From the NCBI GenBank assembly GCA_003225175.1, contig QIBA01000034.1, forward strand, positions 1 to 64,000: a stretch of 64,000 nt of DNA, written 5' to 3'. Shown here piece after piece: positions 11,336 through 64,000 of this stretch. The notes beneath the pieces are model-generated. The model did no database searches. It was not told where the DNA came from and was given only the letters and a program-made list of their open reading frames with translations. How positions within the stretch are numbered: position 1 is the stretch's first letter; every line of letters starts with the position of its first letter. This DNA comes from Acidobacteriota bacterium (GTDB taxonomy: Bacteria; Acidobacteriota; Terriglobia; Terriglobales; Acidobacteriaceae). The translations under genes were made by a program, and so were the position numbers.

Positions 11336-12639
11336 CGATGCTGCCTGCTAACTGGAGCCGTGAAGTTATAAATCAGCGACGCTGATAGTCGATTGTGATT
11401 TGCCAAATTTGCTGCCACCGGATTTGAGGTTGTTGCATGGGCATGCCAGTAACGAACATCCAAGGACAACCGTGGTGTGATGGCGCGCGTCGCGCCAAAC
11501 GCAACAGAAACATAGGAGAGTGGCTCAGTACGTACTGCTAATCCTTGAGCATGGTCCTCAGAAGCAAGCGCGTTGATCTTCCAACGACGAGTGAGCACCT
11601 GTCTCACTTCGGCGCTCGTACTGGAGAGTCGGACAATACCTTCTAGAGCTGCTCCATCGCTGATCCTCCGGTTCCATCCCAGCAATAAGGTTGTACTTTT
11701 GCGCGAGCACACGTAGTTAGCTCCGCCCGTCCAGCTCCATTCCTTTTGCCGCGAAAGAGCACTGATTGTCTCTGAGAGACTCGAGCCAGAGTCAGTGCGA
11801 AAAGCTGAGTGTTCCGGTCCCAAGAAAAATGTGAGCTTATTCGAAGCAGTGAGCAGCATCGCCTGAGTGTAAAGAACCCTTTCAACAAGAGACCGCGAAT
11901 GAGGATCTCTTGAAACGAGTTCCTGAACATTCCAATCCACTCCGATCGAATTATGCCTGGTCAATCGATAGGAATAGAAGGTGTTCGCGCTGGCGGCTCT
12001 CGCGGCGCCGAGTTCCCGCGCATCGGATGAAGAAGTGTAACTAACGTTGTAGAACGTCCCGTTCAACCCAACCATGGATCGAGGTCCCAAGCTGTACGCT
12101 AAATCCATGCCTGCCTGCTCATTGTTCATTCTTGCCGTTGTGATGATGTTGCTATTTAGCAAATTAGCGGCGCCTGACGTGGATATGAGCTGTGAGGTTT
12201 GCAGCTGATCGAATGCGTTGTTCGTCCTCAGGAATGTCTCGTGAGCGCGTAGTCTGAGGCGCTTTGTGACTGCGAGTTCCAGACTGCCATTGAGAAATTC
12301 GGACGGGAGATTGTACGTACCGAGTACCCTGCTGTTCGAGAAGCCGGGACGATAGTCAATCGCCCATTTTGCTGCTGGCCTGGAGACATTCCATCCTACG
12401 TGAGGCTCGACGATGGTGAGCAAGTCTGATTGCTTACTTCGAGCAGTACCTAATGCGTCGTCGTCGAAATCAACGGAGGTGCGCAGACCGAGTGAAAATG
12501 AATTTTCCCGTATGCCACCCTCTTGGGTTGCGAATAATGGGATTTCGCCGGGTAGAATTGGATCGCTCAAGCTTTGTGCCTGCAACCTTGCTTCACTCAC
12601 GAGCAAGAGAGCCGCGAATATCAAGAGTTTCAGGCACAT
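11332..12639 (-). CDS. Outer-membrane beta-barrel protein of the exopolysaccharide locus
   Basis: A signal peptide (residues 1-21, ending ARLQAQ) precedes a 410-residue mature part made of alternating hydrophobic and polar strands with Ser, Asn, Arg and Thr, ending in 'ASLIYNFTAP', a typical barrel end. It resembles the putative exosortase/PEP-CTERM-associated barrel proteins of exopolysaccharide clusters (GumB/BcsC-like role, low sequence conservation). It would form or help the outer-membrane pore for the polymer. Its position between the Wza-like gene (10 nt) and the co-polymerase (4-nt overlap) supports that. No catalytic motif is seen. Confidence 0.75.
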   Translation of the reverse strand: MCLKLLIFAALLLVSEARLQAQSLSDPILPGEIPLFATQEGGIRENSFSLGLRTSVDFDDDALGTARSKQSDLLTIVEPHVGWNVSRPAAKWAIDYRPGFSNSRVLGTYNLPSEFLNGSLELAVTKRLRLRAHETFLRTNNAFDQLQTSQLISTSGAANLLNSNIITTARMNNEQAGMDLAYSLGPRSMVGLNGTFYNVSYTSSSDARELGAARAASANTFYSYRLTRHNSIGVDWNVQELVSRDPHSRSLVERVLYTQAMLLTASNKLTFFLGPEHSAFRTDSGSSLSETISALSRQKEWSWTGGANYVCSRKSTTLLLGWNRRISDGAALEGIVRLSSTSAEVRQVLTRRWKINALASEDHAQGLAVRTEPLSYVSVAFGATRAITPRLSLDVRYWHAHATTSNPVAANLANHNRLSASLIYNFTAPVSRQHR

Positions 12640-49132: not shown

Positions 49133-50827
49133 GTGAAGTATCTTGTCCGCCACACCCTCTTGCGGAGATTCTCACTTATAAGAGTGCGGTTCATCGGCCG
49201 TCATTTACTCTTGGCTTGCCTGCTTTGCACTTCGACGTGGGCACAACTGCCAAGCGGAGAACCTGCTACACCTTCCGCTCTGGCACGAAAGGATCCACTC
49301 GGACGCAGCACTCCTCGCGGAACTGTTCTGGGCTTCCTGCTCGCCGCCGGCAAGAAAGACAACCAAGTCGCTGCGCAATATCTCAACGCTCGCGAAGGCC
49401 CAAAGGCGACCGCTGCTCTTGCCGGCGAACTCTATGTTGTCCTGAACAGGCGGCTACCAGCACGTCTCAATGAGATTAGCGACCGGCCCGAGGGCACTGC
49501 CACAAGTCTGCTTCGGCCGGATCTATATCTAGTCGGCACCATCAACGGAACCAATCTAGAGGTCACTCTTGAGCGTTTTGAGAGAGAGGACAGCGGCCAA
49601 ATTTGGCTATTCTCCCGCGCAACCCTGGAAGCTATTCCCGCAATCTATGAGGAGACCCACCAAATATCAGCTGAGGATATCTTTCCACAAGCCTTCGTGA
49701 ACAATTACCTATTAGGAATTCCTGCCTATGAATGGGTTTTTGTATTTGTCGGCCTTCCTCTCATCTACTTTTTGACGGCATTGTTGAATCGTTTATTGTT
49801 GCCGGTTGTTGGCTGGTTTCTCAACCGTTTCCGGCGGCGGACAGATCAACGTCCGCGACAAGTATTACCGCAACCGATTCGTTTACTGATTGTCGCAGCC
49901 TCTATTCGTTGGCTGCTCTTGGAGATGGGTCTTTCCCTCATCGCGCGGCAGTTCTGGTCAACCTTGGCCACGCTCATTACGATCTGCGCCTCTGTGTGGC
50001 TCTCGATTTTGATCAACCGCGGAAGCGAGCAATACGTTCGCGCTCGCCGGCAAAGCCGAAATGCATCGGGAGGGGCTTCCGTTCAGCGTCTGATACGCCG
50101 ATCCGTTGACTTGGTATTCGTGTTTGTTGGTTTTCTGGTCATGCTCCGGCATTTCGGGATAAGCCCGACAGGCGCACTGGCCGGCCTCGGCGTTGGTGGC
50201 ATTGCAATCGCGCTGGCAGCCCAGAAGACTCTCGAAAATGTAGTTGGCGGCATCTCGCTAATCATGGATGAGGCGGTGCGAGTGGGAGACGTTCTCAAGG
50301 TAGGAGAAGTCACGGGCACCGTTGACGATATCGGCCTGAGATCGATCAGGATCCGAACTCTTGATCGGACAATGCTCGTTATTCCCAACGGCCAGCTTGC
50401 GAACATGAATCTGGAGATTATCTCTTGTCGCGACAAATTCTGGTTTCACCCCACAATCACTCTGCGCTACGAGACTACATCTGCTCAAATAAGCTCCATG
50501 ACAGAAGGCGTCGAAAATCTGCTGACAGCCCATCCACACATCGACAGGGATTCAGTTCGCGTGCGATTGTTTCAGATGGCCAGCTTTTCCCTGAATGTTG
50601 ACGTATTTGCATACGTGTATGCATTAGATTGGAATCAGTTCTTGCGAATTCAAGAAGATCTTCTACACGGCATAATGGCCATCGCACAGCAGATCGGCGC
50701 CCAGTTTGCCTTCCCGTCGCAAACCACGTATCTCGTTACGGATTCGACAAAGAACGACTCTGCAGCTGAGTTATTGTTGCCGGAACGACTGCCCCAACCA
50801 CTGAACGCCGCTTCAGCAGCTCGTTGA
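49133..50827 (+). CDS. MscS family mechanosensitive channel
   Basis: A 564-residue inner-membrane channel that opens on osmotic downshock. The GTG start is followed by a signal-like segment (about 23-37) and an extra periplasmic domain of about 150 residues. Next come four or five membrane helices from 'EWVFVFVGLPLIYFLTALL' (about 201) onward. The pore helix is 'GALAGLGVGGIAIALAAQ' and the MscS beta domain 'VRVGDVLKVGEVTGTVDDIG' follows, with 'PNGQLANMNLEI'. The C-terminal alpha/beta domain is normal. No close start signal could be found, so the exact start is uncertain. Confidence 0.92.
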   Translation: MKYLVRHTLLRRFSLIRVRFIGRHLLLACLLCTSTWAQLPSGEPATPSALARKDPLGRSTPRGTVLGFLLAAGKKDNQVAAQYLNAREGPKATAALAGELYVVLNRRLPARLNEISDRPEGTATSLLRPDLYLVGTINGTNLEVTLERFEREDSGQIWLFSRATLEAIPAIYEETHQISAEDIFPQAFVNNYLLGIPAYEWVFVFVGLPLIYFLTALLNRLLLPVVGWFLNRFRRRTDQRPRQVLPQPIRLLIVAASIRWLLLEMGLSLIARQFWSTLATLITICASVWLSILINRGSEQYVRARRQSRNASGGASVQRLIRRSVDLVFVFVGFLVMLRHFGISPTGALAGLGVGGIAIALAAQKTLENVVGGISLIMDEAVRVGDVLKVGEVTGTVDDIGLRSIRIRTLDRTMLVIPNGQLANMNLEIISCRDKFWFHPTITLRYETTSAQISSMTEGVENLLTAHPHIDRDSVRVRLFQMASFSLNVDVFAYVYALDWNQFLRIQEDLLHGIMAIAQQIGAQFAFPSQTTYLVTDSTKNDSAAELLLPERLPQPLNAASAAR

Positions 50828-51719: not shown

Positions 51720-52079
51720 GATCTGCAGGTAGTTGTAGTTCGTTTTGTACTCCAAAGCGCCGTGGCCCTCCCCTCCGGTTTGTGCAAACTCAGTCAACAT
51801 CTTGTGATTTCCGAATCTAGAATGAGAACATCTTGTGATCACGTTTGCCGCGATGGTCGATTTTGCACGGTTCCTCGCAGCGACGGACACTTTGCGGCCG
51901 ACGCAGTCGCGCGCTTGAGCTCGAATGCTGTCATTCCCGGCGTGCACGCAAGTGGATATCCCACACGTCCCTGCCATTTTGCCCGCGCTCGGACCACGAT
52001 GCAACCAGAACCAAGCCCGGGAGTCAAACAAGAAAGAGTGTGAAAAGTTTGACCAGAAATCAGCAGTTTACAAACGTTA

Positions 52080-52199
52080 GAACGACGGTATTTTCATCCG
52101 TCGTTCGTACTTAGGAACAGTCCTTCGTAGTTGCAGTACAGGAGAGTGTGGCGGATCGGTAGTGGTCGCCGATCCGATCTTACCCAGTCAGTACTGACT
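52080..52199. terminator. Three consecutive hairpins downstream of the DUF4136 gene
   Basis: GAACGACGG (52080-52088) pairs with CCGTCGTTC (52098-52106); GGATCGG (52153-52159) with CCGATCC (52169-52175); and AGTCAGTACTGACT (52186-52199) is a perfect palindrome that overlaps the stop codon (52198-52200). They sit between convergent genes and would end transcription from either side. The 360 nt from 51720 to 52079 show no gene. Confidence 0.5.
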
Positions 52200-52761
52200 A
52201 TGTCTTCGCTTTCGGCGGATAATTCTTGAAGAGCTTAGCCACGGCTTTATTGAGATTTTTTTCCTGCTTTTCAGGCTTGGCCTTCGGATCGAGTGTCTTG
52301 CTGGCGACGCCTCGCCAAACCAAGGTGTGATTTGTTGAGTCATACATGTCAACCACGAGCTGGCCGGTATATATGGTTGACGTTTGTCCGGTAGTCATGG
52401 AAGATCCGCCCATCCCTCCGTACCAGCCGCCCCGATACCATCCGCCCCCGTATCCCCAGTCAGTGCTATACGAAGTAAATTGTTTGTCCTGGCCGATCGC
52501 GGTTTGATATCCAAGAAAAATATCTGCCTGATCTGAATCCACTTTGCTTAAGCCTTTCGCCGCTAACTGCGCGTCGATCGACGACTTAACTTGCTTGTCT
52601 ACGATATCGTTGGGAGTTTGCGCCCCCTTAATCAGAACCCACTTATACGTTTTAAACTTGCTAAAGTTTTCGGTCTTATCAAAGTTATAACGAACGTCTT
52701 GTGCGCCGACAAAACTTATTGCCACCAGCAGCACAGCAGACAAACAAGTGATTCTTGACAT
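52198..52761 (-). CDS. DUF4136 family secreted protein (second copy)
   Basis: Start at 52761 (MSRITCLSAV), with GGAGAAGCGT just before; the frame extends to 52923 but without a good start. Signal peptide about 1-20 ('VAISFVGAQ'), then 'VRYNFDKTENFSKFKTYKW' and 'DAQLAAKGLSKVDSDQADI', the DUF4136 signature. A Gly/Trp/Tyr-rich stretch ('WGYGGGWYRGGWYGGMGG') in the middle is unusual compared with the copy at 32536. The end 'VVDMYDSTNHTLVWRGVAS' and 'KLFKNYPPK' is typical. It is exported; function unknown. Confidence 0.88.
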   Translation of the reverse strand: MSRITCLSAVLLVAISFVGAQDVRYNFDKTENFSKFKTYKWVLIKGAQTPNDIVDKQVKSSIDAQLAAKGLSKVDSDQADIFLGYQTAIGQDKQFTSYSTDWGYGGGWYRGGWYGGMGGSSMTTGQTSTIYTGQLVVDMYDSTNHTLVWRGVASKTLDPKAKPEKQEKNLNKAVAKLFKNYPPKAKT

Positions 52762-53109
52762 ACGCTTCTCCACTTCTAGATTTAACAATGCCAGCCCGAG
52801 CCTGTCTTTGAGGAGTGTTATGTGCTGAAACTCACGGGAGTAGACAGGTGCCGTTCGAGGTTTCCTGCACAGGATGATAGGCGGTGAAAGGCTGAAGCGG
52901 GCACTGGCAAACCTGCCAGACACAACCGGGCAGTTTCAAGTGCCGGAGAAAGAACCGGACCCTATCGTCCGCAGATTTCAACATCGGGCACCTTGTAACA
53001 GTTCCCCGCTTCATGACCGATAACTCTGCCTGCATCGCTGAGACTTTTGACAGTTTGTTGTGACGGTTGGCAGCAGAATACTCGGCTCACAAACACTGGA
53101 GGTGCACTC

Positions 53110-54585
53110 ATGATCTTTAATAGAGGGAAGGCATGTCTGGGCTGCCTCATTGTCCTGCTGCTCTACGCGAGTGCTATGTGCTCGCAGAGTTCAGATCCGT
53201 CGGCGGCTGCGGTTGAAGCACTTCGGCAGCAACTCGCAAGCCTGCAGACCCAAATGGCGGATGTTCAGAATCAGCTCAACAAGCTCTCTGCACGCACTAC
53301 TGACTCACAGTCATCGGGTAGCCCGGCTGCTCAGCAGTCCTCTGACAAAAAAGAAGAGTTAACTGAGGAGTTGAACAAACAGGCGAAGCACCAAACGGGC
53401 GAAGCCGTGGCAACTTATGAGACCTACTCTCAGGATCCTCAAGCGGCTCCCCGAGTGGACAACTTGCCGCTTGATCCAAATTTCCCTGGATATTTTCGGC
53501 TACCCGGCACGAAAACGCTCTTGAAGATCGGCGGCTACTTTAAGAGCGACTTCATCCGCGATCTCAGGCCCGCGGGCGATCCGGAGCGCTTTATCCCTTC
53601 CAGTATTCCCGTTCCCACAAGCGGGGGTGGAACGAACTCTACGGTATCGGTGCGGCCGACTCGGCTAAACCTCGACTTCTTAATTCCGTTGGAAGACGTG
53701 GGGAGCGTACGGTTCTTCGTGGAAGGAGACCTCTTCGGCTCCAGTTCAACCACGCCACGCATGCGGCATGCATATGCGCAAATGAAGAACTTTCTGATCG
53801 GCCAGACATTCTCAAATTTCCAGGATCCGGATTCCGGTCCCGATCAACTCGATTTCCAAGGTCCGAACGCGCAGGTGTCACTCCGTAATCCGCAGTTCCG
53901 CTACAGCATTCCGTTGGGGCAAAAAACTACTTTTAGGCTAGCGCTCGAAAAAGCTTCATCGGACATCGCTTTCACGACTCCAGAGTTCAAGGCGCTACCC
54001 AGTAACCAAGCTCCGGACGGAACCGCGACTCTTCGTCATGACATGGAAAGAGGACACATACAGCTATCTGGACTATTCCGAAGTGTGGGAGCCTTCTTAC
54101 CAAACGGGGTTAGTGATTCGGTATTTGGGTGGGGATTTAACTTCACTGGATCGCATAAGACATTTGGTAAGGATACTTTCGTCTACCAAGGCGTATATGG
54201 CCATGGCATTGAGCGATACTTGAACGATACATCCGGATTGGGCATCGACGCTGCTGTAACGAGCACGCAGGATCCCCATTTGAAGGCCGTTCCCGTCGTT
54301 GCCGCTTATGGAAGTTATCAACATTTCTGGATGGATAGAGTGCGGTCCTCTGTTATGTACGGATTTGTGCAAGTCGACAATACCAATTTCCAGCCCGGCA
54401 CTGTTTTCCACCAAAGCAACTACACATCCGCAAACGTTATCTGGAATGTGGTTGGATCGTTGCATGTTGGCACAGAATTTCTGTACGGCTGGGTGGTGAA
54501 GAAAGACGGCTCAACGGGAAATGTTCCCCGACTCATGCTGAGCGCGAAATACAACTTTGTGAAAGCTCAGAAAACCGCGAACTAG
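53110..54585 (+). CDS. DcaP-like outer-membrane porin
   Basis: A 491-residue porin for small carboxylates. The start at 53110 (MIFNRGKACLG) follows TGGAGGTGCACTC. After the signal peptide (about 1-26) there is a periplasmic coiled coil ('LRQQLASLQTQMADVQNQL', about 38-62), then a barrel: 'GYFRLPGTKTLLKIGGYFK', 'VSVRPTRLNLDFLIP', 'GSVRFFVEGDLFG', 'LIGQTFSNFQDPDSGPDQLDF' and a final 'LMLSAKYNFVK'. The coiled coil and the 'GxxKSD' strand match DcaP of Acinetobacter, which admits dicarboxylates. It is 57 nt upstream of the decarboxylase and probably its substrate-entry route. Confidence 0.85.
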   Translation: MIFNRGKACLGCLIVLLLYASAMCSQSSDPSAAAVEALRQQLASLQTQMADVQNQLNKLSARTTDSQSSGSPAAQQSSDKKEELTEELNKQAKHQTGEAVATYETYSQDPQAAPRVDNLPLDPNFPGYFRLPGTKTLLKIGGYFKSDFIRDLRPAGDPERFIPSSIPVPTSGGGTNSTVSVRPTRLNLDFLIPLEDVGSVRFFVEGDLFGSSSTTPRMRHAYAQMKNFLIGQTFSNFQDPDSGPDQLDFQGPNAQVSLRNPQFRYSIPLGQKTTFRLALEKASSDIAFTTPEFKALPSNQAPDGTATLRHDMERGHIQLSGLFRSVGAFLPNGVSDSVFGWGFNFTGSHKTFGKDTFVYQGVYGHGIERYLNDTSGLGIDAAVTSTQDPHLKAVPVVAAYGSYQHFWMDRVRSSVMYGFVQVDNTNFQPGTVFHQSNYTSANVIWNVVGSLHVGTEFLYGWVVKKDGSTGNVPRLMLSAKYNFVKAQKTAN

Positions 54586-54642
54586 GCTGAGCTGAATCTG
54601 CGCCATGAAGCACCATAACCCGCAACAATCTGGAGGAAGGTG

Positions 54643-57429
54643 ATGAGTATTGCAGCAACTGCACAAGGCACTCGTGTTGATCAGTTCTTTACCGCAGCAG
54701 AAGCCCGGTTTGACCGGTGGCGGACACTGTTGGACGCAGCGCGCGCCTGGGAGGCAGGAAAAGAGAAAGATTCAAGTTCGACGTTTGCTGCCCTCCAGGA
54801 ATTGAAACAATGGGAGGATTACTTCGCTTATCCCGGTCCCATTCTGATGCGCAGTCTGGAGGAAAGCATCGCCTCTGGTGATCTGAGACGAACCGTTCGA
54901 TTGGTCCAGTTGATCCACGTTGCTCTTCTTACGCATTCATATCGCAGTAATCCGGCTGAGTGGGACGGAGAAGAACAGCCGGTCAGGTTAGGAGAGGGTC
55001 TTCCCGGCGGAGACGACGCTGCCGCTCACCGCCCATATTTTGAAGTGCTGGTCGTTACACCTCTCCGTCGGGATGCCTGGCCCGAAATGGCACAGGAGTA
55101 TAAAAAGCTCCGTCGTCCGCAGGACAGGTTCATTTACGAATTGGTCTTTGTCGGGAGCTTTGAAGACGCAGTACTCGCATCGATTGTGAACGGCAATATC
55201 GAGTCGGTAATCGCATCCGATGGCGTTCCGTTCGCCTCCTCTCATGATGCACCGGTTTTACGTGAGTTTCTGCTGGCGAATCTGCCCTCTCATGCGTTCA
55301 GTACGCGTTCTGGCGAGCAGACTCTGGAGCTCGCAAGAGCGCTGAAGCAGATTCGTCCGGAGCTCGACATTTTTCTTCTCAGCGGAAGCGAAGTGGAAAA
55401 GATCGCAGGCGATGCCACCGCTGCGGAATATATCCGACGGATTTTCTATCAAGTCGAAGAACCGCTGGAGCTGCATCTCAGCATCCTGGATGCAATTGCG
55501 GACCGATTTGAAACTCCTTATTTTGACAATCTACAGAAATATGCCCAACGTCCCATGGGCACCTTTCATGCGCTGCCGGTAGCGCGCGGGAAATCGATTT
55601 TCAAGTCGAATTGGATTCGAGATATGGGCAGGTTCTACGGCATGAACCTGTTCCTCGCGGAATCATCCGCTACCACAGGCGGTCTCGACAGTCTGCTGGA
55701 ACCCACCGGGAACGTAAAGGTCGCCCAGGAGAAGGCCGCTCGAGCCTTTGGGGCGGACCATGTATTCTTCGTCACGAACGGCACTTCAACGTCGAACAAG
55801 ATGGTTGAGCAGGCGTTGCTGGGTCCCGACGATATCATGCTCGTCGATCGAAACTGCCACAAATCACATCACTATGGTGCGGTTCTTTCTGGAGCACTTC
55901 CTCTTTATCTTGAAGCCTATCCTCTGAGGAAATTCTCGATGTATGGAGCAGTTCCTTTGGCCTCCATAAAACAAGCCCTACTCGAACTGAAAGCCGAAGG
56001 AAAACTGGACCGTGCTCGACTTCTTGTCCTCACCAACTGCACTTTCGACGGACATATCTACAACGTTGAACGCGTGATGGAAGAATGCCTGGCCATCAAA
56101 CCTGACCTGATTTTCCTGTGGGACGAAGCATGGTTTGGATTTGCCAGATGGACTCCGTTCTATCGCCGGCGCACGGCGATGGGAGCTGCAGCCATTCTGG
56201 AGCGTAAGTTTAAAGATCCCGCGTATCACAGGGCCTATGAGGAGCAAAAGAAAAAGTTGGGAGATAACCTCGACCTCTCGAATCCAGAGGTACTAAAGAC
56301 GCGTCTCTTGGCCGATCCTGACAAAGTACGGCTGCGAGTGTACCAGACGAACTCGACACACAAATCAATGTCTTGCTTGCGTCAAGGGTCGATGGTCCTG
56401 GTCAAAGATCAGGATTATCACACTGTAGAAGAGCAGTTCCATGAAGCGGTGTTCACTCATGCCTCTACTTCGCCCAACCTCCAGATCATTGCATCGATCG
56501 ATGTGGCACGCCGCCAAATGGAGTTGGAGGGATACGAGCTGGTAAATCGAGCGATTCAATTGGCTCTTGACGTGCGCCGTGAAGTTAATTCGCACCCGTT
56601 GGTTTCAAAATATTTCCATGTTGCCGGAGCGGACGAGATGATTCCGGAAGAATTCCGCGCTTCCGGATTCGTGGATTACCTGGTTCCTGGCACAAACTGG
56701 TCCACCAGTCTGAAATGCCTGCGCGACGATGAAGTTGCGCTCGACGTGACGCGGCTGACGTTAGTGTGTGGAAGTGCCGGTTTCGACGGCACGCAATTCA
56801 AGAACATACTCGCCGCAGATTACGATATTCAGCTAAACAAAACCTCCCGCAATAGCGTGCTGCTGCAAACCAACATCAATAACACTCGCAGCGACATTGC
56901 ACATTTAATCAAAGTCCTCGTCGGAATTTCGCAACAGATAGACGTGAAACTTCAGCGTGGCGGCAAACAGGCACAGCAAGCCTTCGCGGCACGCGTAAAG
57001 TCTCTGATGGAGGATGTGCCTGATCTTCCAAATTTCACTAGCTTTCACAACACGTTCCGACAAAATCCGGCGAGCACAACCAGCGAGGGCGACATGCGCT
57101 CTGCTTTCTTCGGAGCATATCGCGAGGAACAGTGTGAGCATGTGAAGCTCTCGAGTGCGGAAATCGATCGGCGTCTGAAGGAGGGTCCCGAGCTGGTCTC
57201 TGCCAACTTTGTGATTCCCTACCCGCCTGGATTTCCGATCATGGTTCCCGGCCAAGTGATCAATCGGGAAACGATCGAGTTTATGCGCAAGCTGGACGTC
57301 AAAGAAATCCACGGATTCGCTGCGGCGCTTGGCTTGAAACTGCTCACGCCAGCGTATCTCGAAGCTGCCGGCGGTCGCGGCAAAGGTATTGAACAGCCAA
57401 AGCGCGTGGCGCGGAGTTCTGCTGCTTAG
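54643..57429 (+). CDS. PLP-dependent Orn/Lys/Arg decarboxylase family protein, enlarged
   Basis: Cytosolic fold-type I decarboxylase of 928 residues (typical members have 710-760). The start follows TGGAGGAAGGTG; an in-frame GTG one codon earlier is possible. An N-terminal wing-like domain (about 1-330, 'PYFEVLVVTPLRRDAW', 'IESVIASDGVPFASS') precedes the PLP core: 'VFFVTNGTSTSNKMV', 'DRNCHKSHHYGAVLSG', 'IFLWDEAWFGFARW' and 'NSTHKSMSCLRQGSM', where Lys about 573 holds PLP. The C-terminal domain has 'IPYPPGFPIMVPGQ'. The reaction would be amino acid to amine plus CO2, consuming a proton; arginine, lysine or ornithine cannot be chosen by sequence. It is linked to an antiporter and aspartate 4-decarboxylase downstream. 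Confidence 0.9.
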   Translation: MSIAATAQGTRVDQFFTAAEARFDRWRTLLDAARAWEAGKEKDSSSTFAALQELKQWEDYFAYPGPILMRSLEESIASGDLRRTVRLVQLIHVALLTHSYRSNPAEWDGEEQPVRLGEGLPGGDDAAAHRPYFEVLVVTPLRRDAWPEMAQEYKKLRRPQDRFIYELVFVGSFEDAVLASIVNGNIESVIASDGVPFASSHDAPVLREFLLANLPSHAFSTRSGEQTLELARALKQIRPELDIFLLSGSEVEKIAGDATAAEYIRRIFYQVEEPLELHLSILDAIADRFETPYFDNLQKYAQRPMGTFHALPVARGKSIFKSNWIRDMGRFYGMNLFLAESSATTGGLDSLLEPTGNVKVAQEKAARAFGADHVFFVTNGTSTSNKMVEQALLGPDDIMLVDRNCHKSHHYGAVLSGALPLYLEAYPLRKFSMYGAVPLASIKQALLELKAEGKLDRARLLVLTNCTFDGHIYNVERVMEECLAIKPDLIFLWDEAWFGFARWTPFYRRRTAMGAAAILERKFKDPAYHRAYEEQKKKLGDNLDLSNPEVLKTRLLADPDKVRLRVYQTNSTHKSMSCLRQGSMVLVKDQDYHTVEEQFHEAVFTHASTSPNLQIIASIDVARRQMELEGYELVNRAIQLALDVRREVNSHPLVSKYFHVAGADEMIPEEFRASGFVDYLVPGTNWSTSLKCLRDDEVALDVTRLTLVCGSAGFDGTQFKNILAADYDIQLNKTSRNSVLLQTNINNTRSDIAHLIKVLVGISQQIDVKLQRGGKQAQQAFAARVKSLMEDVPDLPNFTSFHNTFRQNPASTTSEGDMRSAFFGAYREEQCEHVKLSSAEIDRRLKEGPELVSANFVIPYPPGFPIMVPGQVINRETIEFMRKLDVKEIHGFAAALGLKLLTPAYLEAAGGRGKGIEQPKRVARSSAA

Positions 57430-57765
57430 GCACAGATACGGGAGATCTTCCGAAGCAGGTCGAGAGTAACTTGCGGGAGGGGTGGCTTGGCTGAGCTCTG
57501 CCTGCGCGTGGGACTGCTTTGTCCCCTTTTGAAACTGCGAAGCAAGGATGCTCCAGTTCATCACTGACAGGTTTACCAGTTGTTGGTCCTGCCGATTCTT
57601 CTGATTATGAATAGCGCAAACCAAGATTGAGAGCACCAGCAGCTATTCACTTCTGCGGCGTGGCTCTCAAACGAAGCCCTGTCAAAAAAAGCTTCGTCAA
57701 GCGGACTCTTGGGCTTCCTGCTCTCGACCTCTGCGCGGAGCGGGTTGAAATACAGAGGTGACTAC

Positions 57766-59529
57766 ATGTTTTCCTGGTTCGCAGCAACCCTCCGTCAATA
57801 CCCGGAGATCGCTATCTTTCTCACACTCGCGCTGGGTTACTTTTTCGGCAAATTTCAATTCCGCGGCCTCGGTCTGGGATCGGTCACTGCCACGCTGTTG
57901 TCGGGTGTCCTGATCGGACAGATCGGAATTACGATTTCGACGCCTCTTAAGGCGACCGTGTTCTTAATGTTTCTGTTTGCTGTTGGCTACGGAGTCGGGC
58001 CACAGTTCGTTCGCGGCGTCGCGAAAGATGGAGGACCACAAGCCCTGTTTACTGTTGTCCAATGTGCGCTCTGCCTGGCGGTGCCGATCGTAATCGTCAA
58101 ATTAGTCGGTTATGACCTTGGCTATGCAGCAGGACTTTACTCGGGCTCTCAAACAATCTCTGCGGCCATGGGACTCTCAACCGACGCAATCAACCGATTG
58201 GGGCTCGGCGCCGACCAAACGAAGGCGCTACTCAACTCAATGCCAATAGCTTATGCCGTGAGTTACATCTTTGGGACGGTCGGTTCGGCGATCGTCATCG
58301 GATTGCTTGGCCCTGCGCTGCTCCGTTTCGATCTCGCCAAAGCCTGCAAGGATTACGAGGAGAAACATGGCGGAACGAAGGATCTTGGTGGGGCGGGCAC
58401 TGCGTGGCACCGATGGGAAGTACGGGCATTCCGTGTGCTCGCGAACAGCAGAGTCAACGGTTTGCGAGCTGCGGAAGCGGAATCGCTTGTTCCCAACGCG
58501 CGCGTTTTTGTCCTGCGCCTGCGTCGAAATGGAGTGATTGAGGAAGCAGCTGCAGACACAGTATTGCGCGAGGGCGATGTAATAGCAGTTGTAGGTGCTC
58601 GTGAAGTACTCGTAAACATTATCGGCGAGCGAGCGAAGTTAGCTGCGGTTGCAGGAGGGCGCGAAGGTACTGCGATTGGCGGGCAATCTGCACTAGAAGT
58701 TGATGATCCTGAACTCTTGAGCGTTCCAGTCGAGGGCATCGATGTTTGTCTAACTAAGAAAGAGGTGGACGGAAAGACTCTTGCTGAGATTGCGCACCAA
58801 CCCGGTGCTCGCGGCGTTTTTCTGCGGAAGATTACGCGAGGCGCAGTCGCTACGTCCATTCCCATCCTGCCGAACACGAAGATATTCCGTGGCGACATTC
58901 TCAGCATCGCCGGCCGCACTCAAGACACCGCTGCAGCCATCAAGATGATTGGCGTTCCTGATCGTGCTACGGATGTGGCCGACGTGGCGTTCATCGGCGC
59001 CGGAATCGCAGTCGGCGCACTGATCGGCGCGCTAGTTTGGAAAGTAGCAGGCATACCGATAACCCTTTCAACTGCGGGCGGCGCGCTCATCTCCGGACTT
59101 GTGTGCGGATGGCTGCGCTCGGTCCGGCCGACATTTGGCCGCATACCCTCCTCGACCGTATGGTTCATGAACTCCGTCGGCCTCAACATCTTTATTGCAA
59201 TAGTCGGCATCTCGGCGGGTCCAGGCTTCGTGAATGGCTTGCGGACACAGGGCATAAGTCTCTTTCTGTGGGGTGCCGTTGCCACAACAGTGCCGCTTGT
59301 TTTGGGCATGTACATCGGCAAGTACCTCTTCCGGTTCCACGACGCGATCTTGCTCGGCATCGTTTCTGGCGCGCGCACGACGACAGCTTCCCTAGGGCTC
59401 GTCTGCGATCGGGGGAAGAGCCAGGTTCCGGCGCTTGGGTACACAGTGACCTACGCAGTTGGTAACACATTCCTCACAATCTGGGGCATGGTGCTGATCG
59501 TGCTCTTAACCTTCGGATCTTCCAAATAA
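57766..59529 (+). CDS. aspT: AspT-type aspartate:alanine antiporter
   Basis: A 587-residue inner-membrane exchanger of the AAEx family. ATG 57766 is chosen (AGAGGTG upstream) over a GTG at 57709. The N-terminal half has five to six helices ('[19 protein letters not shown]'), followed by two cytosolic TrkA_C (RCK-type) domains at about 210-380 ('[18 protein letters not shown]', '[18 protein letters not shown]'), then the second membrane half with a matching '[17 protein letters not shown]' and '[14 protein letters not shown]' motif. It swaps external aspartate for internal alanine, a net charge movement that builds proton-motive force. The gene for aspartate 4-decarboxylase follows by 16 nt. 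The 336-nt gap before it holds nothing but a possible promoter. Confidence 0.9.
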
Positions 59530-59545
59530 CAACGAGGAGAAAATC

Positions 59546-61174
59546 ATGGACCTTATGGACCTCAGCAAGTTCGAGACGTTGAGCCCGTTCGAGATCAAAG
59601 ACGAGCTGATCAAACTCGCTAAGAAAACCTCCCGTACAACTCAATCAGCATTTCTCAATGCCGGCCGCGGCAACCCGAATTGGATCGCGACCACTCCGCG
59701 CGAGGGCTATTTTCTGCTAGGTCAGTTCGCAATCACGGAGAGCAAACGTGTAATGGAGCACCCGGCAGGTCTTGGCGGAATGCCGCAGGCTCAAGGCATC
59801 GCCGGCCGGCTTGACGAATGGCTTGCGAAGCACGCAGAAATGCCCGGCGCTTCCTTCCTGTCATCAATGGTGACATTTGCCGTAAAGAAGTTCGGATTTG
59901 AGCGCGACGCCTTTGTGCATGAGCTCGTCGATTCCATCATTGGCGATAACTATCCGGTGCCAGATCGAATGCTCGTACACAACGAGCGCATTGTGCACGA
60001 GTATCTGATGTGGGCCGTCTGCGGAGATCCGGTTCCAACCGGCAAGTTCGATCTGTATGCTGTCGAGGGCGGGACCGCGGCGATGTGTTACATCTTCAAA
60101 TCACTGAAGATGAATCGCCTGCTGCGTCCGGGCGACACCATTGCACTGGGCACACCCATCTTCACGCCCTATCTTGAGCTGCCTCATCTCGAGGACTATG
60201 GTTTGAACTTCGTCACCATTCATGCTCCTCAGGAAAACCGTTTTCAGTTCACTGACGCAGAACTCAAAAAGCTCGAGGATCCCAAAATCAAAGCGTTCTT
60301 TCTCGTAAATCCAGGTAACCCGACGGGAATGGCGCTGAGCCGCGAGGTCATCGGTAAAATCGCAACGTTGGTTAAGACGAAGCGTCCCGATCTTTTGCTC
60401 CTCACGGACGATGTGTACGGTACCTTCGTCGAAAACTTCCGATCGCTACTCGGTGAGTTGCCGCACAATACGATCGGAGTCTACTCCTATTCGAAATATG
60501 TCGGCTGTACCGGATGGCGGCTCGGGGTCATCGCGATCCACGAAGACAACATCTTTGACAAGATGATTGCGAAGCTTCCTGAAGCCGATCTGAAAGCGCT
60601 CGACAAACGCTATGGCGCACTCACTCTGGAACCGCGCAAAGTCAAGTTCATCGATCGGATTGTTGCTGACAGTCGCGACGTAGCTCTCAACCATACGGCT
60701 GGGCTCGCACTGCCTCAACAAGTAATGATGAGTATGTTCTCGCTTGCCGAACTGATGGATACCTCCAAGAAATATCAAAAGGCATGTATGGAGATCTTGC
60801 ATCGCCGTGCCTGGGCTTTGATCGGAGGCCTGGGCTTGGAGGTCACGCCGAATCCGTTGTACGACGCCTACTACGGATTAATTGACTTCGAGTTCTGGGC
60901 GCGCAAGAACATCGGCGAAGAAGCGGTTGAGTATCTCAAGAAGAATGTGCATCCGCTGGACCTTGCTTTTCGTTTGGCGGAGGATCGTGGAATTGTGTTG
61001 CTCAATGGTAGCGGCTTCGAAGCGCCAAACTGGTCACTACGTGTGTCATTGGCCAATCTCGACGACGAGGCGTATGAAGAGATTGGGCGCGGCGTTCGGT
61101 CGATCGCACGGGGATATCGAGATGCACACGAAGCTGCGAAGCGGGCCGAGAAAGCCAGGAAGGCAGTCGCCTAG
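59546..61174 (+). CDS. aspD: Bifunctional aspartate 4-decarboxylase / aspartate aminotransferase
   Basis: A PLP enzyme that converts L-aspartate to L-alanine and CO2, consuming a cytosolic proton. The start follows ACGAGGAGAAAATC. Family features: 'FLNAGRGNPNWIATTPREG' near the N-terminus, 'VEGGTAAMCYIF', 'FLVNPGNPTGMALS' (aminotransferase signature), and the PLP Lys (about 316) in 'YSYSKYVGCTGWRLG'; 'NWSLRVSLANLDD' carries the carboxylate-binding Arg. The 542-residue length is normal for the dodecameric ASD group, longer than ordinary aminotransferases. Coupled with aspT it forms the AspD-AspT energy/acid-resistance cycle known from Tetragenococcus and Comamonas. Confidence 0.95.
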   Translation: MDLMDLSKFETLSPFEIKDELIKLAKKTSRTTQSAFLNAGRGNPNWIATTPREGYFLLGQFAITESKRVMEHPAGLGGMPQAQGIAGRLDEWLAKHAEMPGASFLSSMVTFAVKKFGFERDAFVHELVDSIIGDNYPVPDRMLVHNERIVHEYLMWAVCGDPVPTGKFDLYAVEGGTAAMCYIFKSLKMNRLLRPGDTIALGTPIFTPYLELPHLEDYGLNFVTIHAPQENRFQFTDAELKKLEDPKIKAFFLVNPGNPTGMALSREVIGKIATLVKTKRPDLLLLTDDVYGTFVENFRSLLGELPHNTIGVYSYSKYVGCTGWRLGVIAIHEDNIFDKMIAKLPEADLKALDKRYGALTLEPRKVKFIDRIVADSRDVALNHTAGLALPQQVMMSMFSLAELMDTSKKYQKACMEILHRRAWALIGGLGLEVTPNPLYDAYYGLIDFEFWARKNIGEEAVEYLKKNVHPLDLAFRLAEDRGIVLLNGSGFEAPNWSLRVSLANLDDEAYEEIGRGVRSIARGYRDAHEAAKRAEKARKAVA

Positions 61175-61240
61175 CCGGAGCTTACGCATTGCGATGGCTA
61201 TAACTCGTGCTCTTCATTGAATCCAGGAATTAGACTGATT

Positions 61241-61739
61241 TCAAAAACCGTATAGCGATGCGGCCAATCGTTGCAGTCCACGATCCTGAGCAATGATGTC
61301 GAGATGAATGGAGGTCCAGTCAGCCAGAAGCAGATTTTCATGTCCCTCTCCGTCGTACGTTTTCACATAGCCGCTGCAGGTTTCGTAGCGATCGATGCGA
61401 AGAGGTGCTTCTCCCTTCAATGGCGAGAACTGATAGCCGATGGTCACTCTGGGAATCGCAAAATGGGCATCCCGTGCGCTTGTACGGCCACCGTGTGCCA
61501 CAGCATCCACATGAAAGGAATCGTCGACGCCCCGGTTCCTTGCCGACTAATTGGGCCATGCTGGGTAAAGAGCCACAAGTTGGACAATAGCTTCGGAGCC
61601 AGCGCTCTTCATCGCGCCATTTACGAAACGCTTCTATCAGGGGGCTAGGTAGCGGGACAGTCCTTTCCAGCCAATGTTCGCAGCAATCCAGGAACAGACG
61701 TAGAGAATGGGGCATCGTAGAGTAGCCAACCCACAGCAA
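61241..61739 (-). pseudogene. FdhE-like formate dehydrogenase accessory protein, broken
   Basis: The Cys-rich rubredoxin-like part of FdhE is recognised: 'LRSYCPTCGSLPSMAQL', 'RFLSCGCCGTRWPYKRTGC' and 'CPFCDSQSD' in one frame (61338-61739). The continuation 'EAPLRIDRYETCSGYVKTY' and 'TSIHLDIIAQDRGLQ' lies in another frame that ends at 61241. One extra G in GAAGGGAGAAG (near 61412) explains the switch. The N-terminal half of the family (about 120 residues) is absent or out of frame. No formate dehydrogenase gene is present in the window. Confidence 0.75.
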
Positions 61740-61900
61740 GGCTAGCCGCGTTCACGCCGCCCAATTCGGTATTCAGAGTCTTGCTGGCCTCTGAACGAAA
61801 AGGCCTGAATCTGGCAAAGATCAAGCGTTCACTTAGGACATCGCTGGAAAGTCTCTAGCGTTGAGCCTCCGGAACTGGAACGACACTGAAGGCGGAAGGC

Positions 61901-62839
61901 ATGAAACTGACCAACGCTGCGTGTTGCGTTTTGATCTTCGTGCTGCCGCTGTTCGTGCTTGCCGCTTCCGGCAAGCACTCCAAGTCTCAGAATTCCCCTC
62001 AACAGACTGAATCGACGCCCCAAGCGAATTCCGATTCCTCCAAGGGCGAACATTTCACCGACAATCCTGCCGATCCATCGCTTTATGCCGGCACTGACAC
62101 ATGCAAAACGTGTCACGAGGACATCGGCAAGACCTACGATCACAGCCCACACTGGAAGACAATGCTCAATCACCGTGGCGTGCAGTATCAGGGATGAGAG
62201 GCCTGTCACGGACCGGGCAAGGCACACGCCGAAGCAGGCGGCGATATTACAAAGATCATCCGCTTTAAAGAACTCTCGCGCGAAGAATCGAGCAAGCGCT
62301 GCCTAAGCTGCCATGAGTTCGGAGAGGAGCACGCCAACTTCCTCCGGTCGGAACATTTAGAAAATAACGTAGGCTGCATTGACTGCCATTCGGCACACCA
62401 TCCCAAAGTGGAACGTGCTCTTCTGATGATGGCCCAGCCAATGCTGTGTTACGGCTGCCACCTCGAAATCAAACCACAGTTCTCCAAACCCGTTCACCAT
62501 CGCGTGGACGAGGGCCTGATGTCGTGCAGCAATTGTCATAATCCGCATGGCGGGTTCATGACGCGCCGGCTGCGTTCGACCGCTGCACAGGATCAGGTTT
62601 GCTTTGGCTGCCATACAGACAAGGCGGGACCTTTCGTCTTTGAGCACGCGCAGTGAAGACCGGAGGCTGCGTCTCCTGCCACACTCCCCCATGGTTCGTC
62701 GAATCCGCGCCTGCTGAAGCGCAGCCAAGTCAATGTGCTCTGCCTGGAGTGCCACACGCTCACGGTGGATTCGGCGGCTCCCGGCATTCCGTCATTCCAT
62801 AACCAGGCGCAGAAATACCAGGCCTGCACTCGGTTATGA
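61901..62839 (+). pseudogene. DmsE-type decaheme cytochrome c, broken
   Basis: Signal peptide 1-23, then c-type heme motifs in order: CKTCH, (TGA)EACH, CLSCH, CIDCH, CYGCH, CSNCH, CFGCH, CVSCH, CLECH, and the first Cys of a tenth ('YQACT'). The family is the periplasmic decaheme DmsE/MtrA-like group. Damage: TGA at 62195-62197 exactly replaces the first Cys of the second heme motif; a C is missing at about 62653 (expected GCGCCAGTG); an extra C lies in CCCCC near 62690; and the tenth motif is cut off by fusion with the next gene. It cannot make a whole protein as given. Confidence 0.85.
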
Positions 62840-63299
62840 GCAGCACATGGAGCGATCTAAACAGACTAGTTTCTGCCTGTCCTGCCACCTTATGGAGCCC
62901 TACGGGCGCAGCCTGCAGGTTGATGATCCAACCTGGCTTCCCGCTTCCCAGTTCCAGAACAACCGCGTGCCTCGCGAGCAAGCTTGCTACACCTGCCACA
63001 GCGATTACGTCATGTACGGCAGCATGAAGGCGAAGTGGCGCGGGCTTCATCACATTTACGCGCAGTACTTAGGGAATCCCAAGCCTCCGCTCCATCTTTA
63101 CCGTCCCTACAACAACCGCGAGTGTCTGCACTGCCACGCCGGATCGCGGACCTTTGAGGAAGGCGCAACTCACAATGCCGATCCTCAGATCATGGCCGAT
63201 ATAAAGAGCAACAGGATGTCATGCTTGACCTCCGGGTGCCATGACCAGATTCACAACACTACCAAGCTCAACGAAGTGAAGTATTGGAACGCGAAATGA
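62832..63299 (+). pseudogene. NapC/NirT-like multiheme cytochrome, N-terminally truncated
   Basis: The frame encodes 'GYEQHMERSKQTSFCLSCH' then CYTCH and CLHCH motifs and an unusual CX4CH at the end ('SCLTSGCHDQIH'). 'CLSCHLMEP' is the heme-1 form with a distal Met found in NapC/NirT quinol dehydrogenases. The N-terminal membrane anchor is missing; instead the sequence joins directly to the tail of the decaheme gene, as after a deletion. It may be translated from an internal start but would lack quinone access. The following gene overlaps its stop. Confidence 0.75.
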
Positions 63300-63568
63300 G
63301 TGTCGAAATTCAAATAACCGAGATCGAACGGCGCCTACGGATTGCGGGAGCCCTCATATTCCTCGGCCTGCTGATCGAGGCCCTTACGCTGCAGTGGAAC
63401 AGTCCTATGACCTTTCTTGTGTTTTTGGGATTAGGCGGCCTTCTCATTGGTCTTGGGGTAGTCTTCTATCTCTTTTCCCTTGTATCCTCTTCTACCCCTG
63501 AGGACTCCTCGAGAGCCCCTCGGCTGCGAAACAGTCGGGACTCAGATCGCATAATCGCGGAGAACTAA
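63296..63568 (+). CDS. Small membrane protein of unknown function
   Basis: A 90-residue protein starting ATG 63296, which overlaps the stop of the cytochrome remnant (ATGA). Two membrane helices are visible: 'IAGALIFLGLLIEALTL' (about 16-32) and 'TFLVFLGLGGLLIGLGVVFYL' region (about 38-60). The C-terminal 30 residues are polar with Ser, Arg and Asp, probably cytosolic. Such small two-helix proteins often sit in respiratory operons. No family is recognised. Confidence 0.6.
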   Translation: MSVEIQITEIERRLRIAGALIFLGLLIEALTLQWNSPMTFLVFLGLGGLLIGLGVVFYLFSLVSSSTPEDSSRAPRLRNSRDSDRIIAEN

Positions 63569-63651
63569 GAGATCGTCCCAACCTGCCCCACTTTCGCATA
63601 CGGTTGAAAAAGATCAGATTAATGAGTGACCGGTCCATCCTTTATTAGGTG

Positions 63652-64000
63652 TTATTCAGGTTTGCCCAGCCACGAATACTGCCAGCCGACAGATACACTT
63701 TGGAAATTGCCGCCGAATCTCACGTATGCACCTCTGCTATAGCTGAATTTCAGAGACTGGTGGAAGTTGATCGGTACCGAAACCGTTCCTCCGATTCTGG
63801 AATTTGACTGCAGGCTGATTGGGCTTTCAATTCCATTCAGAGTAGTTCTGCCTCCACGCCAGAAGTTGCAATCCAGCGATGCCCATAATCGGGGCCGCAC
63901 ATCGTAACTCAAATGTCCTTCGAAGGCGACTACAGGTTTCTGAGATTGCGTGTTTTTGCCGGCGGAAAATTGGTTTCGCGAAAAGAAGTCGTGATTCGTC
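63652..64000 (-). CDS. Phenol_MetA_deg-type outer-membrane barrel, 5' partial
   Basis: The 3' part of a minus-strand gene that runs off the right end of the window (open frame to 63999). 'TNHDFFSRNQFSAGKNTQS', 'VAFEGHLSYDVRPRLWASLD', 'SRIGGTVSVPINFHQSLKF' and 'YSRGAYVRFGGNFQSVSVG' fit the C-terminal strands of the Phenol_MetA_deg/transporter barrel family of outer-membrane proteins. The protein ends 'WQYSWLGKPE'. The shorter frame starting at 63912 (TTG) is only an internal codon. Function: probable uptake of aromatic or hydrophobic compounds, by family. Confidence 0.75.
   Translation of the reverse strand, partial: TNHDFFSRNQFSAGKNTQSQKPVVAFEGHLSYDVRPRLWASLDCNFWRGGRTTLNGIESPISLQSNSRIGGTVSVPINFHQSLKFSYSRGAYVRFGGNFQSVSVGWQYSWLGKPE

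What the first reader, a model, noticed from the sequence alone, without database searches (positions are those of the whole stretch)
53110..61174. Porin, basic amino-acid-type decarboxylase, AspT antiporter and aspartate decarboxylase as one module
AspD-AspT alone is a known electrogenic cycle. Here it is joined by a second, unusually long decarboxylase and a DcaP-type porin for carboxylates, giving a complete path from outer membrane to decarboxylation and exchange. It may let a soil acidobacterium gain proton-motive force and resist acid. Whether AspT also serves the second decarboxylase is open.
Basis: partly seen in the sequence, partly recalled or inferred. Interest (0 to 1): 0.65.

Follow-up and report, generated by a model that had tools for sequence, protein, structure and literature searches.

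The report
Acid amino acid decarboxylation–antiport gene module
A soil bacterium carries a gene cluster that probably imports acidic amino acids, strips off CO2 and swaps the product out again, to make energy and use up acid; one of its two decarboxylases belongs to a family whose substrate is not known.

Summary
AspT and AspD pass their NCBIfam cut-offs.

ODC is normal in length for its own family, that of M. tuberculosis Rv2531c (structure solved, activity unknown), but lies in a distinct clade. In 66 of 80 loci an AspT-family gene lies within 450 bp on the same strand; AspD is in 29 of 80. The seven relatives examined outside the clade have no AspT in their loci.

ODC is probably not a basic-amino-acid enzyme. 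Where classical enzymes have an acid (CadA E526 or AdiA's Asp at the CadA 530 position), all 96 long sequences have Asn and Arg. Two relatives (G070, G031) have a glutamate decarboxylase instead of ODC in the cluster. I predict glutamate, or else aspartate, as substrate.

The close porin is in 6 of 150 family genomes, all six with AspT, five with AspD. A congener has a second antiporter between ODC and AspT that is missing here. The exact gene order was seen only here; the gene set recurs. Nothing was tested biochemically.

The parts
53110..54585 (+). DcaP-type outer-membrane porin gene
   Evidence: PF19577 56.7 bits and PF02530 33.3 bits, both over cut-off; PDB 6eus DcaP-like E 1.4e-13; close homologues (47-100% identity, own gene counted) in 6 of 150 family genomes, all six with PF06826
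54643..57429 (+). Long (928 aa) PLP-dependent decarboxylase of Orn/Lys/Arg fold, Rv2531c family, AspT-linked clade; by alignment Schiff-base Lys574, PLP-N Asp494, Asn732 at CadA Glu526, Arg736 at CadA Pro530
   Evidence: PF01276 235.6 bits; phmmer to 9n0o 729 bits; AlphaFold model pLDDT 75.8, pTM 0.79, VIA-align Z 49.3 to 9n0o_B over 758 residues, 42% identity; family alignment; clade tree
57430..57765 (+). 336-nt gap between decarboxylase and AspT, where congener G108 carries a second AspT-family gene (AspT2)
   Evidence: L114 order POR-ODC-AspT2-AspT1-AspD; blastn: gap positions 142-193 (E 0.005) and 256-335 (E 2.8e-6) match L114 12642-12693 and 12758-12831, beyond the AspT2 ORF (10882-12585); no match inside that ORF with E under 1
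57766..59529 (+). AspT: aspartate-alanine exchanger family antiporter (PF06826 halves and TrkA_C domains); the only PF06826 protein found in this genome
   Evidence: TIGR03802 619.3 bits, cut-off 546.95; PF06826 and TrkA_C, two stretches each; PDB 8y1x AspT E 3.6e-51; own-genome search finds only this gene, as two half-matches
59546..61174 (+). AspD: L-aspartate 4-decarboxylase
   Evidence: TIGR03801 782.8 bits, cut-off 435.1; PDB 2zy2 E 1.4e-157, residues 7-532 aligned

Best explanation
The locus is an acidic-amino-acid decarboxylation-antiport module. The DcaP-type porin lets aspartate/glutamate-type anions into the periplasm. AspT brings aspartate(1-) in against alanine(0) out, and AspD turns aspartate into alanine plus CO2, consuming a cytoplasmic proton; net result, charge separation and alkalinisation. 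The long Rv2531c-family enzyme is a second decarboxylase of the same kind of cycle, acting on an acidic amino acid, most likely glutamate (product GABA), with aspartate alpha-decarboxylation (product beta-alanine) as the next candidate. In relatives a second AspT-family carrier (AspT2) probably served one of the two decarboxylases; here it is missing, so the single AspT serves AspD and perhaps also the long enzyme. Shown: gene content, family membership, conservation, AspT linkage of one decarboxylase clade, the AspT2 difference. Inferred: substrates, transport, energy gain, acid resistance.
For: AspT and AspD over curated cut-offs; the AspD-AspT cycle is known (PMC9508256 passages). ODC has an AspT on the same strand within 450 bp (ORFs taken stop to stop) in 66 of 80 loci, in the locus in 70 of 80; AspD is in 29 of 80, so ODC-AspT is the steadier pair. 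One of the ten without, L033, ends inside an AspT. The AspT-linked ODCs form one clade (25 of 32 dereplicated rows, SH-aLRT 100, stem 1.19); the 7 rows outside have no AspT in their loci. Charge reversal: the acid at CadA 526 or 530 is present in all 24 acidobacterial classical rows aligned and in CadA, LdcC, SpeF and AdiA, while 96 of 96 long rows have Asn and Arg. A glutamate decarboxylase takes ODC's part in G070 (TIGR01788 535.6 bits, cut-off 380.4; transcribed order AspD-AspT-porin-AspT2like-GAD) and a GAD 72% identical to it in G031; none of 80 ODC loci shows a GAD. The own genome has two PF00282 proteins, neither listed for TIGR01788 at E 1e-20. Glutaminase is the second gene after ODC in Devosia L073; a remoter porin sits with asparaginase, aspartase, DcuA/B, an AspT and glutaminase in G026 L184. 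Second carriers fall under the Asp:Ala cut-off of 546.95 (G108 AspT2 545; G106 527.1; G070 518; Bradyrhizobium ODC-linked carrier 381.7), as another substrate would allow. HdeA/HdeB and carbonic anhydrase genes lie in the Rhizobium cluster L118.
Against: No substrate was measured. The GAD swap rests on 2 genomes, and in G031 the porin and second AspT are broken; the G070 'AspT2' is only 37% identical to G108 AspT2 and 35% to AspT1, so its type is unsure. Glu526 is not diagnostic by itself: 23 of 24 acidobacterial classical rows have Ala there and AdiA has Thr. Arg736 is also in the seven relatives without AspT, so it does not track AspT linkage, and Rv2531c has Ile there. 9 of 44 Bradyrhizobium loci show ODC with no AspT in the locus. 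Congener G054 has ODC (contig ends inside it) but no PF06826, no AspD (E 1e-60) and no close porin in its assembly. Close-porin genome G038 has neither ODC nor AspD, and its AspT lies about 20 kb away. Window AspT has Gly where T. halophilus AspT has Arg76. The 336-nt gap allows two transcripts.
Confidence: 0.55

Rival explanations
1. The long enzyme is a classical basic-amino-acid (Lys/Arg/Orn) decarboxylase with its own unlinked antiporter, and its place beside AspT-AspD reflects a mixed acid-resistance island rather than one shared cycle.
For: Fold and PLP motifs are those of the Orn/Lys/Arg family; HdeA/HdeB in L118; loss of Glu526 alone is common among classical enzymes.
Against: Misses all six Lys/Arg/Orn NCBIfam cut-offs by wide margins; Asn/Arg where classical enzymes have an acid; ODC stays next to AspT without AspD in the locus in 43 of the 84 loci counted; no APC-type amine antiporter among the neighbour families shown (first 25 of 91 families).
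Confidence: 0.13
2. The long enzyme is an aspartate alpha-decarboxylase (product beta-alanine) or otherwise uses the same aspartate pool, and the one AspT serves both enzymes.
For: A carrier most like the window's AspT lies next to ODC with no AspD in the locus in L047, L099, L116, L117 and L119; AspT carries aspartate (PMC9508256); the genome gave no PanD hit.
Against: The enzyme found in ODC's place is GAD, not PanD; glutaminase in L073; ODC is in only 4 of 150 family genomes, so it is no general beta-alanine source.
Confidence: 0.2
3. The long enzyme is not a decarboxylase but catalyses another PLP reaction (aminotransferase or lyase), as PGAP labels its remoter relatives.
For: Remoter relatives are annotated 'aminotransferase class I/II-fold' or 'beta-eliminating lyase-related'; Arg736 could hold a substrate carboxylate (inference); Rv2531c activity is unknown (PMC12910592 passages).
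Against: Orn/Lys/Arg decarboxylase architecture over most of the chain, antiporter partner and the GAD swap point to a decarboxylation-exchange cycle; the ~60% identical plasmid relatives are annotated 'decarboxylase'.
Confidence: 0.12

Closest known systems
AspD-AspT proton-motive cycle (Tetragenococcus halophilus)
   Same: Both proteins present, adjacent, over family cut-offs
   Different: Joined by a porin and a second decarboxylase; window AspT has Gly at the T. halophilus Arg76 position
Rv2531c of M. tuberculosis (PDB 9N0N/O/P), putative amino acid decarboxylase of unknown activity
   Same: Similar length, same fold, 42% identity over 758 aligned residues, Asn at the CadA E526 position
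   Different: Window enzyme is in a clade linked to AspT; Rv2531c has Ile where the window has Arg736. Rv2531c itself was not in my tree and its neighbourhood was not examined
GadB-type glutamate decarboxylase with antiporter
   Same: GAD takes the second-decarboxylase part in the clusters of G070 and G031
   Different: Another PLP family (PF00282); carriers beside it are AspT-type (that E. coli GAD uses GadC is recalled)
CadA/AdiA/SpeF acid-inducible decarboxylases
   Same: Orn/Lys/Arg fold, STHK-type Schiff-base motif
   Different: Window enzyme is about 170-215 residues longer than these four E. coli enzymes, misses equivalog cut-offs, lacks the acid at CadA 526/530; carrier is AspT-type
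DcaP porins of Acinetobacter (6eus)
   Same: PF19577 match over the barrel part (residues 185-504)
   Different: Distant in sequence; substrate untested

Membership tests
Aspartate-alanine antiporter AspT (TIGR03802) | Score over the curated cut-off and two PF06826 halves | tested here: met
   619.3 bits against 546.95; two PF06826 stretches and TrkA_C
Aspartate-alanine antiporter AspT (TIGR03802) | Arg76 in TM3 of T. halophilus AspT, said to be involved in transport (title in the reference list of PMC9508256) | tested here: not met
   Counting from residue 12 in the alignment, Arg76 is the R of GYRVGP; the window has GYGVGP. Whether it defines the family is not known; carriers over the cut-off also have Gly
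Aspartate-alanine antiporter AspT (TIGR03802) | Electrogenic Asp:Ala exchange | not testable with these tools
   Needs proteoliposomes
Aspartate 4-decarboxylase AspD (TIGR03801) | Score over cut-off and full-length match to solved AspD with the PLP-Lys segment kept | tested here: met
   782.8 bits against 435.1; 2zy2 aligned over query 7-532, YSYSKY and NAGRGNPN segments present
Aspartate 4-decarboxylase AspD (TIGR03801) | Enzyme activity | not testable with these tools
   Needs assay
Orn/Lys/Arg decarboxylase superfamily (PF01276) | PF01276 major domain and STHK Schiff-base motif | tested here: met
   235.6 bits against 27; STHKS with K574, D494
Orn/Lys/Arg decarboxylase superfamily (PF01276) | C-terminal domain PF03711 over cut-off | tested here: inconclusive
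   23.7 bits against 24.2
Lysine/arginine/ornithine decarboxylase (named-enzyme level) | NCBIfam cut-off of a named enzyme model | tested here: not met
   Best is LdcC 184.5 against 968; ADC 174.5 against 1167; ODC 151 against 794; six models in all
Lysine/arginine/ornithine decarboxylase (named-enzyme level) | Acid at CadA 526 (proposed lysine-binding residue, PMC5607190 passages) or, as in AdiA, at CadA 530 (my reading of the alignment) | tested here: not met
   Asn732 and Arg736; 96 of 96 long rows against an acid in all 24 acidobacterial classical rows and four E. coli enzymes
Rv2531c family | Similar length, full-length similarity and same fold | tested here: met
   phmmer 729 bits, residues 22-908; VIA-align Z 49.3, rmsd 2.2, 758 aligned
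Glutamate decarboxylase | Glutamate to GABA activity | not testable with these tools
   Predicted from context only
DcaP porin (PF19577) | PF19577 over gathering score | tested here: met
   56.7 bits against 27
DcaP porin (PF19577) | Carboxylate permeation | not testable with these tools
   Needs growth or bilayer assay

The most novel reading that the evidence does not exclude
The AspT-linked clade of the Rv2531c family is an unrecognised class of glutamate (acidic amino acid) decarboxylase on the Orn/Lys/Arg fold, its active site charge-reversed, forming with AspT-type carriers a second acid-amino-acid energy and acid-resistance cycle that replaces GAD in the same cluster.
Probability: 0.35. 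Interest if true: 0.75.

Novelty: new variant of a known kind. Interest (0 to 1): 0.56.

Why it matters
The activity of Rv2531c is an open question even with a solved structure (PMC12910592, passages). Genome context gives this clade of its family a carrier, a porin and a known enzyme (GAD) found in its place, so its substrate becomes a short, cheap test. If right, a fold known to me only for basic amino acids has moved to acidic ones, and a second decarboxylation-antiport cycle exists in soil bacteria of several phyla.

Tried and rejected
Arg736 as a marker of AspT linkage: rejected, it is also in the seven unlinked relatives. Loss of Glu526 as proof against a basic substrate: rejected, 23 of 24 acidobacterial classical rows have Ala there; only the pair of positions 526 and 530 separates the groups. 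A consistent extra neighbour gene: 104 neighbour ORFs, picked by me out of 164 called around 25 loci, gave no Pfam family in more than 4 members (Na_Ca_ex 4, TPR_14 4, MscS 3; first 25 of 91 families shown). A canonical GadB in the own genome: two PF00282 proteins, TIGR01788 not listed at E 1e-20. Promoter and terminator scan of 52000-64000: fewer promoter-like sites than shuffles (3 against 6.6), terminator-like sites as shuffles (11 against 12.6), so no transcript can be drawn. GAD, glutaminase, aspartase and asparaginase as general partners in ODC loci: of the 80 loci, GAD in 0, glutaminase in L073 only, aspartase and asparaginase in none. Geometry from the AlphaFold model: active-site loops are under pLDDT 50 (498-503, 572-581, 608-629), so not used. 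Clade-specific residues: 21 positions separate the AspT-linked rows from the 7 others, several around K574 (575-577) and at 738, 742, 746; suggestive only. In the fold comparison rows below the decarboxylases are other PLP enzymes of the same general fold. Literature searches naming AspT with decarboxylase terms found 0 papers. Passages of PMC8503589 and PMC8983666 were read and not used.

Limits of the counts. One search covers loci L033-L112, the best 80 of 306 confirmed places, 44 of them Bradyrhizobium. The phylum sample (396 genomes, E <= 1e-100) gave 4 genomes with an ODC relative: the own genome and 3 of the unlinked type. The family sample (150) gave 29 matching genomes, 4 of them long type; the other 25, classical enzymes or fragments, were set aside. 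Of 36 plasmid records covering 80% of the query I looked at 8. Locus L139 is a short contig with about 4 kb on one side of ODC only. Four of 12 porin loci show glutaminase beside the porin.

Full report
OBSERVATION. ORF listing and translation confirm four + strand genes at the stated place: porin ATG 53110-54585, decarboxylase ATG 54643-57429 (928 aa), AspT ATG 57766-59529 (open from TTG 57709), AspD 59546-61174. Gaps from these coordinates are 57, 336 and 16 nt. Family scans: DcaP porin PF19577 56.7 bits (cut-off 27), OKR_DC_1 PF01276 235.6 (27), PF06826 and TrkA_C for AspT; TIGR03802 619.3 (546.95) and TIGR03801 782.8 (435.1). Solved relatives: Rv2531c 9n0o/9n0n for the decarboxylase, DcaP-like 6eus for the porin, AspD 2zy2, AspT 8y1x and others. 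The own genome has one PF06826 protein, one PF01276 protein and one match to the long decarboxylase, all at this locus. That the organism is an acidobacterium is inferred from the nearest named records, acidobacterial MAGs at 75-77% identity.

THE LONG DECARBOXYLASE. It is not unusual within its own family: the Rv2531c chain of 947 aa aligns over window residues 22-908. An AlphaFold model from 35 sequences (pLDDT 75.8, pTM 0.79) matches 9n0o_B with Z 49.3, rmsd 2.2, 758 residues, 42% identity, then ornithine, arginine and lysine decarboxylases at Z 26.9-31.8 with rmsd 6.8-9.0. A 2026 review says that the structural study did not clarify Rv2531c's activity (PMC12910592, passages read). The window enzyme misses all six Lys/Arg/Orn NCBIfam cut-offs widely.

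SUBSTRATE RESIDUES. MAFFT, a profile search and hhalign agree that the window motif QLNKTSRNS aligns with CadA VVEKTGPYN: Asn732 at CadA E526, which a docking paper proposes as a lysine-binding residue (PMC5607190, passages), and Arg736 at CadA P530. Both are invariant in the 35-row alignment and in 96 of 96 long rows, 93 of them with distinct C-terminal stretches. In the same alignment every classical-length row has an acid at one of the two places: 23 acidobacterial rows Ala/Asp, one Glu/Asp; CadA and LdcC Glu/Pro, SpeF Glu/Leu, AdiA Thr/Asp. So the long family has lost the acid and gained an Arg. Limits: Glu526 alone is not diagnostic; the Arg is also in the seven relatives without AspT; Rv2531c has Asn but Ile in place of the Arg; and I could not place these residues in three dimensions. 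I read this as evidence against a basic substrate and moderate evidence for a carboxylate one.

LINK TO AspT. Of 306 confirmed relatives in the genome collection the best 80 were kept. In 66 of these 80 an AspT-family gene lies on the same strand within 450 bp of the decarboxylase; 70 of 80 have one in the locus, 55 have two or more, 29 have AspD. Outside Bradyrhizobium 35 of 36 are adjacent, and the exception (L033) ends inside an AspT. In Bradyrhizobium 31 of 44 are adjacent and 9 have none in the locus. Annotated plasmids agree: Ensifer L116 aspT-decarboxylase-aspT and Rhodobacter L117 decarboxylase-aspT-aspT, no aspD listed within 9 kb; Rhizobium L118 decarboxylase-aspT-aspD, with HdeA/HdeB and carbonic anhydrase near; Phyllobacterium L119 decarboxylase-aspT-porin. 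More distant relatives L120-L123 list no AspT (PLSDB gene tables are incomplete, but tblastn also found none). A tree puts the AspT-linked enzymes in one clade (25 of 32 dereplicated rows, SH-aLRT 100, stem 1.19); the 7 rows outside (L120-L123, L138-L140) have none in their loci, and the three acidobacterial genomes behind L138-L140 have no PF06826 match at all. The carriers belong to several paralogous groups (136 proteins; tree of 57 rows, one of them E. coli YbjL). Window AspT passes the Asp:Ala cut-off; the second carriers do not (G108 545, G106 527.1, G070 518, G026 523.1; Bradyrhizobium ODC-linked 381.7; cut-off 546.95).

RELATIVES IN THE SAME FAMILY. In 150 family genomes the long decarboxylase is in 4 (G000, G108, G106, G054), AspD in 5 (G000, G108, G106, G070, G031; E <= 1e-60), PF06826 in 15, a porin like this one in 14, six of them close (47-100% identity). 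All 6 close-porin genomes have AspT (p 3.5e-7) and 5 of 6 have AspD (p 1e-8; Fisher, uncorrected for relatedness). ODC goes with AspT in 3 of 4 (p 0.003). G108, of the same genus, has POR-ODC-AspT2-AspT1-AspD. G106 has AspT1-AspD-(about 1 kb)-POR-ODC, with an AspT2 (67% to that of G108) about 13 kb upstream of AspT1 and a third carrier on another contig. Named acidobacterial MAGs L034 and L035 have ODC-AspT1-AspD-AspT2, L035 with a divergent porin upstream. Planctomycete L043 has POR-ODC-AspT1-(Na_sulph_symp carrier)-AspD. So the exact four-gene order was seen only in the window, but the set is shared. Counter-cases: G054 has ODC on a 3370-bp contig that ends in it and no PF06826, AspD or close porin match elsewhere; G038 has the close porin and an AspT about 20 kb apart on one contig, without ODC or AspD.

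MISSING AspT2. In G108 the second carrier lies between ODC and AspT1. In the window that interval is 336 nt; its later part matches the G108 stretch between AspT2 and AspT1, and no match inside AspT2 has E under 1. As relatives of AspT2 are in L034, L035 and G106, loss in the window's lineage is the simpler reading.

THE GAD SWAP. Two genomes with AspD but no long decarboxylase, G070 and G031, have a glutamate decarboxylase in the cluster: G070, transcribed order AspD-AspT1-POR-AspT2like-GAD on one strand; G031, GAD and AspT on one strand, POR, second AspT and AspD on the other. The G070 protein scores 535.6 against the TIGR01788 cut-off 380.4; the G031 one is 72% identical to it. None of 80 ODC loci shows a GAD by tblastn. 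The own genome's two PF00282 proteins are not listed for TIGR01788 at E 1e-20, and PanD is not found. Glutaminase is the second gene after ODC in Devosia L073. In G026 L184 a remoter porin and an AspT lie with asparaginase, aspartase, DcuA/B and glutaminase, and remoter porins adjoin a glutaminase in G040, G119, G026 and G054, 4 of the 12 porin loci. These contexts are of acidic amino acids and their amides. In G031 the porin is split over two ORFs and the second AspT carries a stop, so that cluster looks to be decaying. Two genomes are few.

MECHANISM. Known: AspT exchanges Asp(1-) for Ala(0), AspD converts Asp to Ala, and the cycle generates a proton-motive force (PMC9508256, passages). AspT relatives include succinate and glutamate exporters (PMC9527358, abstract start in a search listing). 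DcaP3 of Acinetobacter is needed for growth on di- and tricarboxylates (PMC12338516, abstract). Inferred: the porin supplies the anion; the long enzyme runs the same cycle on glutamate (or on aspartate at the alpha carbon); each turn removes a proton from the cytoplasm. With only one AspT in this genome, either it serves both enzymes or the long enzyme uses an unknown route.

VERDICT. The 'basic amino-acid-type' label should be read as fold only. The finding is a new variant of a known kind (decarboxylation-antiport cycle), with a testable substrate prediction for part of an enzyme family of unknown activity. Three searches of the held open-access library for the linkage found no paper; that covers only the held library and those terms.

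Noticed in passing
window 61901-63300: A multihaem c-type cytochrome gene after AspD is broken: read in one frame it has several CxxCH motifs but a stop where the first Cys of one such motif is expected, and more stops further on; it looks like a pseudogene.
   Followed up: partly
window 49133-50827; L114:4610-6298; L182:3949-5697: An MscS-type mechanosensitive channel gene lies near or beside the porin in the window genome, in G108 and in G038.
   Followed up: no
L148:4524-9321: In G031 the porin is split over two ORFs and the second AspT holds a stop, while AspD and the GAD-AspT pair are open: a decaying cluster.
   Followed up: partly
L184:3216-13504: G026 has a compact asparagine/aspartate/glutamine cluster: DcuA/B, aspartase, asparaginase, AspT-like carrier, DcaP-like porin, glutaminase.
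   Followed up: partly
L158, L159, L160, L161: Remoter DcaP-like porins adjoin a glutaminase gene in four genomes (G040, G119, G026, G054), 4 of 12 porin loci.
   Followed up: no
G000 whole genome: No PanD (PF02261) hit in the window's genome, so its source of beta-alanine is unclear.
   Followed up: no
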